DNA from: Rhizobium sp. WYJ-E13 | GTDB taxonomy: Bacteria; Pseudomonadota; Alphaproteobacteria; Rhizobiales; Rhizobiaceae | Length of the DNA: 64,000 nt | Direction of reading: 5' to 3' | NCBI RefSeq assembly: GCF_018987265.1 | Contig: NZ_CP076854.1 | Location: 1,798,001-1,862,000, forward strand | Part shown: one piece after another, positions 46,736 to 53,467 of the stretch | Numbering within the stretch: the stretch's first letter is position 1 | Layout: each line of letters opens with the position of its first letter | Position numbers and translations under genes: made by a program | The notes under the pieces: generated by a model | Seen by the model: only the letters and a program-made list of their open reading frames with translations | Told to the model about the DNA's origin: nothing | Database searches by the model: none

Positions 46736-48460
46736 ATGCCGCACAGCGACGCGACACAGTCTGCTTCTGTCGAAACCAATCTCCTTGCCGATACCGACGA
46801 TCTCGTCTCTCTTTATGACGAGAGCTTTCATCTTACCGAATGCTCAGAAAGGCATCGGCAAACGCATGCTGTCGATTCGCTGGTCGATGCCACCTTATGG
46901 CATGTCTATCCGGAGCTTTTAGCCCCTTCGACGAAATCTGCGGTCGAACTCGTACTTTCGAGTGGATTGCCGCGAAACGTCGAGATCGCAGACGCAAAGA
47001 CAGGAGATCAGCGTACACTCACGGTTTTCCGCAGCCCTCGCGGCTTGGGTGTTGTCGAGGCGGACGGCGATTCGAGCTTGCGCGGGACTTATAGCCAGGC
47101 TGAAAATGACCGTGCGCTTCTCTTTCATCAGGCTACCCACGATGTTTTGACCGGACTGCCAAACCGACGGCAATTCAGCGATCAATTGCGGGGTGCCTTC
47201 CCGGTATCAAAGGGGGTAAAGTTCGCCCTCATGCAGATCGACCTCGATGATTTTAAGCCTGTCAATGATACATTGGGTCACGGTGCGGGCGATACCGTCC
47301 TGAAGATGGCGGCCGAACGGATAAGGAGCGTGCTTCGGGAGCAGGAATTCGCTTATCGATTGGCCGGTGACGAGTTCGCGGTCATCCAGCGGAGAGCCAA
47401 TCAGCCTCGGGAGGCGGAGCGCCTGGCAGAAGCGCTCGTCGGTGCGTTCAGGGAACCGTTCACGGTCGAGGGCATCAATGTCTTTGTCGGCGCAAGCGTC
47501 GGGATTGCCGTTGCCCCGGCGGATGGAAACGAATTCGAACAGCTCATGAAAGCGGCAGACATCGCGCTCTATGCGGCCAAAAAGGACGGCAGGCACAGGG
47601 CAAGGAAGTTTAACCGCTCCATGCTCATGGTTCTGGAGCAGCGGGAGACACTGCGTCGCAGTTTGCGGACCGCCCTTAAAGAGGGCCAGTTCTTCATCGA
47701 GTATCAGCCGCTCGTACAACCTCCCTCTTCGATCGTCGGCTTCGAAGCACTGTTACGATGGCATCATCCCGTCGTTGGCATCATCCCGCCCAATATCTTC
47801 ATCCCCATGGCTGAGACGGACGGTTTGATGAGCGACATCGGTCAATGGCTCCTTGAACAGGCCTGTCGTGAAGCGATGTCGTGGCCCGCCCATTTTACAG
47901 TGGCTGTCAATCTCTCCCCGGCGGAGTTTCTGCACGCAGGCCTTACCGATCGCATTGCTCAGACCTTGGACCTCGTTGGCATCCGCGCCGACCGACTTGA
48001 ATTTGAGATCACCGAGTCTGTGTTGTTAGAGCGTACAATCAACAATCTCGACACCCTCAATACGTTGAAAGTGCTGGGAGTGCAGATCTCGCTCGACGAT
48101 TTCGGGACCTACTATTCGTCGCTCAGCTACCTGAAGAACTTTCCCTTCGATACGATCAAGATCGACCAGTATTTCATCAAGGATCTTGAGATCGACGACA
48201 AAAGTCAGACGATCGTCCAATCCATTATCGCACTCGCCCACGGGCTCGGCATGAGCGTCACTGCCGAGGGGGTGGAGACGGCAGAGCAAGCCGCTTGGCT
48301 CAAAAAAGCAAAATGTGACCGGCTGCAAGGATATTTCCTCAGCAAGCCGATGCCCGCCGAAGAGGTCGGTACGTTCCTCAGCAATCTTATGCCGCCCGTC
48401 GCCTTTGAGAACTTCTCGATTTCCGGACGAGCGCCACCTTTGAATCCTAGGAGAATGTGA
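46736..48460 (+). CDS. GGDEF-EAL domain protein
   Basis: A 574-residue c-di-GMP enzyme. An N-terminal part of about 130 residues, possibly PAS-like and without membrane segments, precedes a GGDEF domain whose signature reads A-G-D-E-F (210-214). The EAL domain starts E-A-L-L-R-W (337-342) and keeps N-L-S-P, E-I-T-E-S, D-D-F-G, K-I-D and E-G-V-E-T. The loop D-D-F-G-T-Y-Y-S has Tyr where Gly is usual. Phosphodiesterase activity is likely; cyclase activity is possible, since A-G-D-E-F can be active. AAGGGGAG precedes the ATG. It is the first of six genes in a signalling operon that precedes a c-di-GMP-controlled glucan synthase pair. Confidence 0.9.
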   Translation: MPHSDATQSASVETNLLADTDDLVSLYDESFHLTECSERHRQTHAVDSLVDATLWHVYPELLAPSTKSAVELVLSSGLPRNVEIADAKTGDQRTLTVFRSPRGLGVVEADGDSSLRGTYSQAENDRALLFHQATHDVLTGLPNRRQFSDQLRGAFPVSKGVKFALMQIDLDDFKPVNDTLGHGAGDTVLKMAAERIRSVLREQEFAYRLAGDEFAVIQRRANQPREAERLAEALVGAFREPFTVEGINVFVGASVGIAVAPADGNEFEQLMKAADIALYAAKKDGRHRARKFNRSMLMVLEQRETLRRSLRTALKEGQFFIEYQPLVQPPSSIVGFEALLRWHHPVVGIIPPNIFIPMAETDGLMSDIGQWLLEQACREAMSWPAHFTVAVNLSPAEFLHAGLTDRIAQTLDLVGIRADRLEFEITESVLLERTINNLDTLNTLKVLGVQISLDDFGTYYSSLSYLKNFPFDTIKIDQYFIKDLEIDDKSQTIVQSIIALAHGLGMSVTAEGVETAEQAAWLKKAKCDRLQGYFLSKPMPAEEVGTFLSNLMPPVAFENFSISGRAPPLNPRRM

Positions 48461-48510
48461 ATATCAGTTTTCGAATTCTCTCGGAGCGGATATGGCGAGG
48501 AGGAAACGAT

Positions 48511-49029
48511 ATGCATGCAGCCAGCGACAAGTCACCGGAAGTGAACTTCAAGCCCCTCCTTCGGTTCGAGATGGACATGGCGACATTTCTTTCCGACTGG
48601 CAGCATTGCGATCAACTGTCGACCTTCATGGCGCGGATGATCAGTCACAATCGCGCCGATCCTATTCGGCATTCGAATTTCTTCTCGTTTGCTCTCAATG
48701 AACTGCTGGAAGTATCGTTCCGCGGTGGTTCTCCGCAGGGTTTGATGGACTGCACAGTCTATCGATGCGATGCGACGGAACGTGTAAGGCTCAGTTTCGC
48801 GTCTCCCGCCGGACAGCGAGAATTCTATCGCGAGGCAGTGTCGAGAACTCATCGGAAAGATGCAATCGCGCGTTATCTCAGTGCCATTGCAATGGATCAG
48901 ACGCCAAACAGGGAGGTCACTCTTCTCGATCTGGCAATCAATTTCGATGCCCGCCTGCATCTGGAGGAACGCGCTCCAGCGTCCATAACATTGGTGGTCG
49001 ACCTGCCGCTTGAAGGAAGCATACGTTGA
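48511..49029 (+). CDS. Degenerate ATPase-like signalling protein
   Basis: A 172-residue soluble protein I cannot assign firmly. A segment F-F-S-F-A-L-N-E-L-L-E-V-S-F (about residues 49-62) resembles the N-box of histidine-kinase-type ATPases, as in anti-sigma factor kinases. The later Gly-rich lid and G2 motifs are not visible, so ATP use is doubtful. I chose the ATG at 48511 because GAGGAGG lies before it. Its stop overlaps the TTG start of the STAS-methyltransferase gene by three bases. Its place beside SpoIIE, anti-sigma-kinase-like and STAS genes suggests a partner-switching role. Confidence 0.6.
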   Translation: MHAASDKSPEVNFKPLLRFEMDMATFLSDWQHCDQLSTFMARMISHNRADPIRHSNFFSFALNELLEVSFRGGSPQGLMDCTVYRCDATERVRLSFASPAGQREFYREAVSRTHRKDAIARYLSAIAMDQTPNREVTLLDLAINFDARLHLEERAPASITLVVDLPLEGSIR

Positions 49030-52553: not shown

Positions 52554-53114
52554 ATGACGACCTTGTATGGACTGGAAGATCTGGCAACTGGAACAGGCGA
52601 AAATGTCACGAGGCTGCGCCTTTTTGAGGGGCCTCTCGATATCGGCTGGAAACATTGCGCAATCACGTCGGATTTCGTCGCCGAGGTCGTGGCCTTGCGC
52701 TACCGCACATCGCATAGCCTCTACAGGGAGGTCCGGCACAGTGTCAGTTATCTGACGAACGAGCTTGTCGAGAACGCAGTAAAATTCCGTGCAGCCGGCG
52801 AAATTGTCGTAGAGGCTTCGGTTGAGAATAATGTCTTCCGGGCCAAGGTCTCCAATCTTGTCGACGAGGAAACGTCCGAGCAGTTCCAGCATTTGCTTTC
52901 GGAAATCACGATAGGCGATCCGGGCGAGCTTCTCATCAAACGAATTGAGGCGAATGCAATTGGCGCAAATTTGACGGGCTCAGGTCTCGGACTTCTGACC
53001 CTCATGAGTGATTATGGCGCTCACTTTGCGTGGGTTTTTGGAGCAGGGAAGCCAGACGGCAGAATTCCGCTGGAGACCTACGCATCCATCACAGTTCCAG
53101 ATGCAGCGAATTGA
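52554..53114 (+). CDS. Anti-sigma-kinase-like ATPase (slr1658 type)
   Basis: A 186-residue protein of the HATPase type related to cyanobacterial slr1658. The N-box V-S-Y-L-T-N-E-L-V-E-N-A-V-K-F (about residues 65-79) and the G2 lid G-S-G-L-G-L-L-T-L-M (about 142-151) are both present. It would phosphorylate the STAS partner encoded directly downstream, opposing the SpoIIE phosphatase upstream. It starts four bases after the phosphatase stop. Confidence 0.75.
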   Translation: MTTLYGLEDLATGTGENVTRLRLFEGPLDIGWKHCAITSDFVAEVVALRYRTSHSLYREVRHSVSYLTNELVENAVKFRAAGEIVVEASVENNVFRAKVSNLVDEETSEQFQHLLSEITIGDPGELLIKRIEANAIGANLTGSGLGLLTLMSDYGAHFAWVFGAGKPDGRIPLETYASITVPDAAN

Positions 53115-53128
53115 CGGGAGAGGTCGAT

Positions 53129-53467
53129 ATGGAAATCAAGGAAGAAGAATATCGCGTCTGGTCGGAAGGTACGGAAATCTATTTCGATGGGATTATGCGC
53201 CTGCCCAGCACGGAGGCTTATGCACCCATTTTTTCCCTTGTCATGAATATTCTGGACGCCAAGCCGGATCGCGTCACGATCGACCTCACAGGGCTACAAT
53301 TTCTCAATTCTTCCGGGATCAACCTGCTCGCGAAGCTCACGATTGAAGTCCGCAACAAGCCGAATGTTCAATTCACGGTGCGCGGAAGCTCGGAATATCC
53401 CTGGCAGTCGAAGTCCCTTCCGAACTTGAAGAAGTTGTACCCGGGGGTGGATCTCAGGCTTAGCTGA
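53129..53467 (+). CDS. STAS-domain regulator (slr1659 type)
   Basis: A 112-residue STAS-like protein related to slr1659. The phosphorylation loop D-L-T-G-L-Q-F-L-N-S-S-G-I-N-L-L (about residues 51-66) carries the expected Ser. I chose the ATG at 53129 with GGGAGAGG before it; the longer frame reads out of the previous gene. It is the last gene of the operon and the probable switch protein between the ATPase and the SpoIIE phosphatase. A long hairpin follows. Confidence 0.8.
   Translation: MEIKEEEYRVWSEGTEIYFDGIMRLPSTEAYAPIFSLVMNILDAKPDRVTIDLTGLQFLNSSGINLLAKLTIEVRNKPNVQFTVRGSSEYPWQSKSLPNLKKLYPGVDLRLS

What the first reader, a model, noticed from the sequence alone, without database searches (positions are those of the whole stretch)
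46736..53467. Six-gene partner-switching and c-di-GMP operon upstream of a glucan synthase
GGDEF-EAL, ATPase-like, STAS-methyltransferase, Cache-HAMP-SpoIIE phosphatase, slr1658-type ATPase and slr1659-type STAS genes overlap or nearly touch on one strand. Together they contain a sensor, phosphatase, kinase-like protein, STAS switch and a c-di-GMP output, just before bgsBA, whose product is c-di-GMP dependent. No sigma factor is present, so the switch may control an enzyme instead of transcription.
Basis: partly seen in the sequence, partly recalled or inferred. Interest (0 to 1): 0.75.

Follow-up and report, generated by a model that had tools for sequence, protein, structure and literature searches.

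The report
Phosphorylation switch controlling a c-di-GMP enzyme
This six-gene block is the Rhizobium version of a phosphorylation switch already worked out in a related root-nodule bacterium, where it tells one enzyme when to make the signal that turns on a cell-surface sugar polymer; comparison with relatives shows that five of the six genes form a separate, movable unit with a conserved but unexplained methyltransferase, and that in some other bacteria this unit sits inside a protein-injection gene cluster instead.

Summary
In detail: six same-strand genes (46736-53467) encode a GGDEF-EAL protein, an ATPase-like protein, a STAS-methyltransferase, a Cache-HAMP-SpoIIE phosphatase, an slr1658-type kinase and an slr1659-type STAS protein; bgsBA follows beyond an opposing AraC-type gene. 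The block is the orthologue, in the same order, of Sinorhizobium meliloti bgrRSTUWV (67-86% identity), published in 2019 as a partner switch acting on the diguanylate cyclase BgrR and glucan synthesis. The main idea is therefore already known. Added here: (1) in 151 family genomes all 6 with a bgsA orthologue have the block, but 5 of 11 genomes with the block lack bgsA. (2) The block holds a second, degenerate switch pair: BgrS has lost the catalytic Asn (105 of 105) and BgrT's STAS half the phosphoserine (102 of 105), while BgrT's methyltransferase motif is intact and BgrT is the best conserved protein. (3) Eighteen sampled genomes carry the STUWV core without bgrR beside it; in 14 a second PP2C gene stands upstream, and in five the core lies in a type VI secretion locus. 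Presence of bgrR changes once on the BgrT tree. The role of BgrS/BgrT is the open question.

The parts
46736..48460 (+). bgrR orthologue: N-terminal region of about 130 aa without a Pfam match, then GGDEF (AGDEF) and EAL domains; diguanylate cyclase output of the switch
   Evidence: Pfam GGDEF and EAL; 79% identical to S. meliloti pSymB; A-G-D-E-F in 90 of 90, and the EAL motifs EAL, N, E..E, DD, K in 90 of 90, EGVE in 89 of 90 (one gap) aligned orthologues; residue roles recalled
48511..49029 (+). bgrS orthologue: GHKL-fold pseudokinase, relative of bgrW
   Evidence: slr1658-like (below cut-off); profile match to BgrW E 2.5e-8; predicted fold matches SpoIIAB and SiaB; N-box Asn absent in 105 of 105; start
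49026..50192 (+). bgrT orthologue: slr1659-like STAS domain fused to a class I SAM methyltransferase
   Evidence: STAS half matches the BgrV profile E 8.7e-8; phosphoserine position N in 97, A 4, S 3, M 1 of 105; methyltransferase motif intact; class I methyltransferase fold
50189..52549 (+). bgrU orthologue: membrane sensor (dCache-like, HAMP) with SpoIIE/PP2C phosphatase domain
   Evidence: the Asp of the PP2C motifs conserved in 104 of 104; only SpoIIE match in the genome
52554..53114 (+). bgrW orthologue: slr1658-type GHKL serine kinase of BgrV
   Evidence: slr1658 superfamily 166.5 bits; N-box E..N in 104 of 104, two glycines of the ATP lid in 103 of 104 each
53129..53467 (+). bgrV orthologue: slr1659-type STAS switch protein, phospho-acceptor Ser61 by position
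   Evidence: slr1659 superfamily 134.2 bits; NSSG in 104 of 104; start codon
53511..53544 (.). 15-bp perfect hairpin between bgrV and the convergent AraC-type gene, probable two-way terminator
   Evidence: sequence read directly
53565..54794 (-). AraC-family regulator separating the block from bgsBA
   Evidence: HTH_18 55.3 bits
54975..56351 (+). bgsB orthologue, HlyD-like
   Evidence: HlyD_3, HlyD_D23; gene name recalled, and beside bgsA
56333..58327 (+). bgsA orthologue, cellulose-synthase-like glucan synthase
   Evidence: CelA-like (below that model's cut-off); full-length relatives of 68-92% in other rhizobia; gene name recalled

Best explanation
The block is the orthologue of S. meliloti bgrRSTUWV. 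A periplasmic cue sensed by the Cache-like domain of BgrU changes its PP2C activity; BgrU removes and BgrW adds a phosphate on Ser61 of the STAS protein BgrV; the phosphorylation state of BgrV sets the diguanylate cyclase activity of BgrR; c-di-GMP then activates the BgsA glucan synthase encoded nearby (or another c-di-GMP target where bgsA is missing). Shown by others for the orthologue (seen only in citing papers): BgrU/BgrW set BgrV phosphorylation, and this controls BgrR. Shown here: orthology, gene order, intact catalytic residues. Inferred: that the same circuit runs in this Rhizobium, the signal, the exact serine, and that BgrS and BgrT form a second, phosphorylation-blind arm whose methyltransferase is a further output or regulator.
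For: S. meliloti 1021 pSymB carries all six in the same order: R 79, S 67, T 86, U 86, W 75, V 81% identity (L002). All of the best 80 genome loci have the six. Published function of BgrR/U/V/W in citing passages. Catalytic and phospho-acceptor residues intact in R, U, W, V.
Against: No experiment in this organism. The original paper could not be read. BgrR has an apparently complete EAL phosphodiesterase site, so the sign of its output is not settled by sequence. 34 of 50 further block-bearing loci lie in genomes without a bgsA match, so glucan is not the only client.
Confidence: 0.88

Rival explanations
1. The conserved output of the switch is the methyltransferase BgrT, held or gated by the pseudokinase BgrS; BgrR and c-di-GMP are a later addition in one lineage.
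For: The core without bgrR beside it in 18 sampled genomes, three of them from another order; BgrT is the most conserved protein (median identity to the window 78% in loci with bgrR, 66% in those without); methyltransferase motif kept; bgrR presence changes once on the BgrT tree, SH-aLRT 100.
Against: No substrate known; in the passages read only BgrR, U, V and W are given roles; the tree is rooted at its midpoint, so a single loss of bgrR is equally possible; a methyltransferase fold can serve a non-catalytic role.
Confidence: 0.35
2. In this strain the switch mainly serves a c-di-GMP process other than mixed-linkage glucan.
For: About half of the block-bearing genomes examined lack bgsA; bgsBA lies behind a hairpin and an opposing gene.
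Against: All 6 bgsA-bearing genomes of the family sample have the block and 19 of 80 loci have bgsA within about 10 kb, a lower bound since some loci are cut short.
Confidence: 0.2
3. A classical RsbUVW-type switch controlling a sigma factor encoded elsewhere.
For: BgrU/W/V resemble RsbU/W/V in domains.
Against: No sigma factor in the block; W and V belong to the slr1658/slr1659 families; the reported target of the orthologue is BgrR.
Confidence: 0.05

Closest known systems
S. meliloti bgrRSTUWV with bgsBA (Baena et al. 2019, doi 10.1111/1462-2920.14624; paper not held, title and citing passages seen)
   Same: All six genes, order, domains and catalytic residues; linked to the same glucan synthase
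   Different: In this Rhizobium bgsBA lies 1.5 kb downstream; in S. meliloti 1021 no bgsA lies in the 14.5 kb fetched. Protein identity 67-86%
SiaABCD of Pseudomonas aeruginosa (PMC7647112, PMC8457831, passages)
   Same: PP2C phosphatase, kinase, phosphorylated switch protein, diguanylate cyclase target; works alike
   Different: NCBIfam models for SiaA, SiaB and SiaD match below cut-off (135.3/700, 12.9/85, 110.4/290 bits); no second kinase/STAS pair or methyltransferase (recalled)
RsbUVW / SpoIIAB-SpoIIAA switches
   Same: GHKL kinase, STAS serine, PP2C; the BgrS model folds like SpoIIAB
   Different: Their target is a sigma factor (recalled); none here
slr1658/slr1659 families (NCBIfam NF047703, NF047705)
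   Same: W and V score above the cut-offs; S and the STAS half of T match weakly
   Different: S and T score below cut-off and have lost the catalytic Asn and, in 102 of 105, the phosphoserine

Membership tests
bgrRSTUWV operon | Six genes in this order on one strand | tested here: met
   also 79 of the best 80 genome loci
bgrRSTUWV operon | BgrR with intact GGDEF-type active site | tested here: met
   AGDEF in 90 of 90
bgrRSTUWV operon | Active-site residues of phosphatase BgrU and kinase BgrW, serine of BgrV | tested here: met
bgrRSTUWV operon | BgrV phosphorylation controls BgrR and c-di-GMP | not testable with these tools
   Only reported for S. meliloti in citing passages
bgrRSTUWV operon | Presence of the synthase BgsA in the genome | tested here: met
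   Window 56333-58327
SiaABCD | Members above the curated SiaA, SiaB, SiaD cut-offs | tested here: not met
RsbUVW sigma switch | Sigma factor in the block | tested here: not met

The most novel reading that the evidence does not exclude
bgrSTUWV is an ancestral, movable partner-switching cassette in Alphaproteobacteria with two kinase/STAS pairs: an active pair (W/V) and a phosphorylation-blind pair (pseudokinase S, STAS-methyltransferase T). Its common output is methylation by BgrT; the diguanylate cyclase BgrR was attached once, in the lineage of this window, and in other lineages the cassette, together with a second PP2C protein, is built into type VI secretion clusters and gates that machine instead.
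Probability: 0.3. Interest if true: 0.75.

Novelty: already known. Interest (0 to 1): 0.42.

Why it matters
The window's block is a further case of a published partner switch that steers an enzyme rather than a sigma factor. The comparison turns it into a sharper question: why is a methyltransferase with an intact motif, tied to a dead kinase, the best conserved part of the switch, and why does the same five-gene core occur without bgrR, in five sampled genomes within type VI secretion loci? Point mutants in bgrT and bgrS of a laboratory S. meliloti strain would answer the first part directly.

Tried and rejected
Sigma-factor switch: rejected, no sigma factor in the block. SiaABCD membership: rejected by cut-offs. 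Promoter and terminator scans of 46400-55200 gave no more than shuffles (5 against a mean of 4.3; 8 against 8.7), so no promoter is claimed. That the block is dedicated to bgsBA: rejected. Ten searches of the held paper library listed no paper that I could recognise as being on a bgrR-less block, on BgrS or BgrT function, or on this switch in type VI clusters; I opened only five papers, for passages, and most subscription papers are not held, so this is weak. The STAS review PMC8256260 was searched for six terms: 'diguanylate', 'methyltransferase' and 'Sinorhizobium' do not occur.

Rows and limits. Of 282 genome contigs relatives only the best 80 were kept by the tool, all with bgrR, so they say nothing on how common the bgrR-less form is. 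Several of the 80 loci are cut short, so 19 with bgsA nearby is a lower bound. Of the 61 loci without bgsA nearby I tested 50, leaving 11; among the 16 counted as having bgsA, one (G944) has it in two pieces on opposite strands and one (G927) over 512 of 664 residues. Five BgrS rows and one BgrR row there carried a stop inside the extracted stretch, possibly because the match ran upstream of the true start; they were kept. The three bgrR-less genomes are not in those counts and were not tested for bgsA. The names G400 = Roseibium aquae and G217 = Aestuariivirga litoralis rest only on equal contig lengths. A Fisher value used 18 bgrR-less genomes for bgsA; the right total is 15 (p 0.0013). The protein searches found 439 and 1042 relatives, of which the tool listed 120 each. 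The structure model of BgrT has pTM 0.66 and some weak stretches.
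Full report
1. What is there. The six open frames are real, same-strand and nearly contiguous. Pfam and NCBIfam give GGDEF+EAL; an slr1658-like protein (weak); a STAS domain (slr1659-like, weak) fused to a class I methyltransferase; dCache (weak)-HAMP-SpoIIE; slr1658; slr1659. Corrected starts are ATG 48511 for the second gene, with a clear ribosome-binding site, and ATG 53129 for the last. The block ends at a 15-bp hairpin; an AraC-type gene on the other strand separates it from bgsBA. No sigma factor lies in the block. The phosphatase is the only SpoIIE match in the genome. 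The window is probably from a Rhizobium: the nearest named relatives are Rhizobium sp. strains (BK316, 96% in the third protein; ZK1, 100% over its first 145 residues).

2. Identity. On pSymB of S. meliloti 1021 the six orthologues follow in the same order with R 79, S 67, T 86, U 86, W 75 and V 81% identity. This is bgrRSTUWV (the gene names come from citing papers; that this pSymB locus is that operon is my recall, as the record fetched has no gene annotation), on which Baena et al. [quoted passage not shown] I could not read that paper. I saw its title in reference lists and these statements in passages of citing papers: the BgrSTUWV switch modulates the diguanylate cyclase BgrR, whose activity depends on its STAS partner BgrV (PMC8457831), and the couple BgrU/BgrW sets BgrV phosphorylation and hence BgrR activity (PMC7647112). 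From recall only: unphosphorylated BgrV was proposed to inhibit BgrR, and BgsA is activated by c-di-GMP binding.

3. Link to the glucan synthase. In a sample of 151 genomes of the family, strong matches to BgrT (448 bits or more) occur in 16: 11 with bgrR and 5 without. BgsA orthologues (80% identity or more) occur in 6, all among the 11; one further genome has only a 39% relative. In the best 80 of 282 genome-contig loci all six block genes are present in 80, in one order and strand in 79; in L070 bgrR is inverted. bgsA lies within about 10 kb in 19 of 80; of the other 61, 50 were searched genome-wide and 16 have bgsA elsewhere (one in two pieces), 34 have no match. So in these samples bgsBA goes with the block, but the block often does without bgsBA.

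4. A second, degenerate switch pair. Profile comparison shows BgrS related to BgrW (E 2.5e-8) and the STAS half of BgrT related to BgrV (E 8.7e-8). The model of BgrS (mean pLDDT 88.4) best matches SpoIIAB and also SiaB among solved structures, at modest scores (best E 2.6e-4, TM by query 0.58; SiaB up to 0.65). In aligned orthologues the N-box asparagine is present in 104 of 104 BgrW and 0 of 105 BgrS; BgrV keeps NSSG in 104 of 104, whereas BgrT has Asn at the phosphoserine place in 97 of 105, Ala in 4, Met in 1 and Ser in 3; BgrT keeps Cys163, Gly165, Gly167 and Asp168 of the SAM motif in 105 of 105 rows with residues there. What these residues do is recalled knowledge of the SpoIIAB/RsbV and methyltransferase families. 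BgrT is the most conserved member: median identity to the window 78% (R 63, S 49, U 73, W 60, V 66) in loci with bgrR and 66% (S 36, U 57, W 45, V 58) in those without. Its model (mean pLDDT 82.6, pTM 0.66) matches many class I methyltransferases, which does not tell the substrate. BgrR keeps both its cyclase and its phosphodiesterase motifs, so the direction of its effect must come from experiment.

5. The core without bgrR. Eighteen sampled genomes carry the core with no bgrR match in the stretch fetched around it: 5 in the family sample, 10 of the 21 with BgrT among 397 genomes of the order and 3 among 385 of the class (the fourth match there is the window's own genome). Two of these (G089, G131) are cut by contig ends, so that G089 shows only S, T and the start of U. 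A second, about 300-aa SpoIIE/PP2C gene stands upstream on the opposite strand in 14 of 18, directly beside S or a few genes away; the four without it (G506, G484, G432, G383) belong to one genus, which also holds G400 and G518 that have it. In five (G064, G033, G106, G400, G518) the sheath gene vipA is on the same contig, 4 to 36 kb away. Of the neighbours I scanned only some: in G033 a ClpB/ClpV-like AAA protein, Hcp, a VgrG-like protein, ImpA, two VipB, TssF, TssG and IcmF; in G400 VasJ/ImpA, VipA, an RsbW-like ATPase and a STAS protein; in G106 VasE, DotU-OmpA and FHA, in G064 a STAS protein and a protein kinase; G518 rests on vipA and similarity to G400. So in these genomes the core is part of, or beside, a type VI secretion locus. 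In another group (G453, G217, G283, G513) there is no vipA; there the neighbours are PP2C, STAS and ATPase genes and GPP34-like and acetolactate-decarboxylase-like genes, named by Pfam in G513 and by similarity in the others. On a BgrT tree of 55 rows, presence of bgrR changes once, with SH-aLRT 100 on that branch. The type VI context is not one group: it needs 4 changes, at least 2 forced by starred branches, and is not clearly clustered (65 of 500 shuffles as low) (quick method, midpoint root).

6. Mechanism. Most likely: signal at BgrU, phosphatase and kinase setting BgrV Ser61, BgrV setting BgrR, c-di-GMP activating BgsA or other targets. Shown by others for the orthologue: the BgrU/W/V/R steps. 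Shown here: conservation of the catalytic residues looked at. Inferred: signal, serine, and the S/T arm. My preferred guess for that arm is that BgrS binds the STAS half of BgrT permanently, since neither can phosphorylate nor be phosphorylated in the usual way, and that free BgrV or BgrW competes for this complex and so gates the methyltransferase. This is a hypothesis without direct support beyond conservation and homology.

7. Verdict. The window's block is ordinary in the sense that its system is published. The added value is the anatomy of the second pair, the one-way link to bgsBA and the bgrR-less, partly type VI-linked relatives. I found no report of these in the held library (searches listed in Tried and rejected), which lacks most subscription papers, including the key one.

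Noticed in passing
53511-53544: Perfect 15-bp hairpin between bgrV and the convergent AraC-type gene; not listed by the terminator scan.
   Followed up: no
L070 and L057 (both Ensifer aridi LMR001): One genome has two copies of the block, both with bgsBA within about 10 kb; in the second the bgrR gene is inverted and only 66% like the window's.
   Followed up: no
L164:6101-7535, and L160-L162: bgrR-less core near an alpha-acetolactate-decarboxylase-like and a Golgi-phosphoprotein-3-like gene; Pfam in L164, similar open frames in the other three.
   Followed up: partly
L034:2007-3548, L152:9488-11032, L036:14944-16908: A second methyltransferase with a predicted regulatory domain (PF10119) stands in the type VI loci of three genomes; Pfam in the first two, similarity in the third.
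   Followed up: partly
L035:11557-12900: A cyclic-nucleotide-binding SpoIIE phosphatase lies between the core and the type VI genes in G033, a third SpoIIE gene of that locus.
   Followed up: no
L152:5125-8200: Two adjacent VipB-type sheath genes in one type VI cluster of G033.
   Followed up: no
45535-46473: Regulator with a sugar-binding domain (PF04198, DeoR/SorC type) directly upstream of the block, same strand, 262 nt before bgrR.
   Followed up: no
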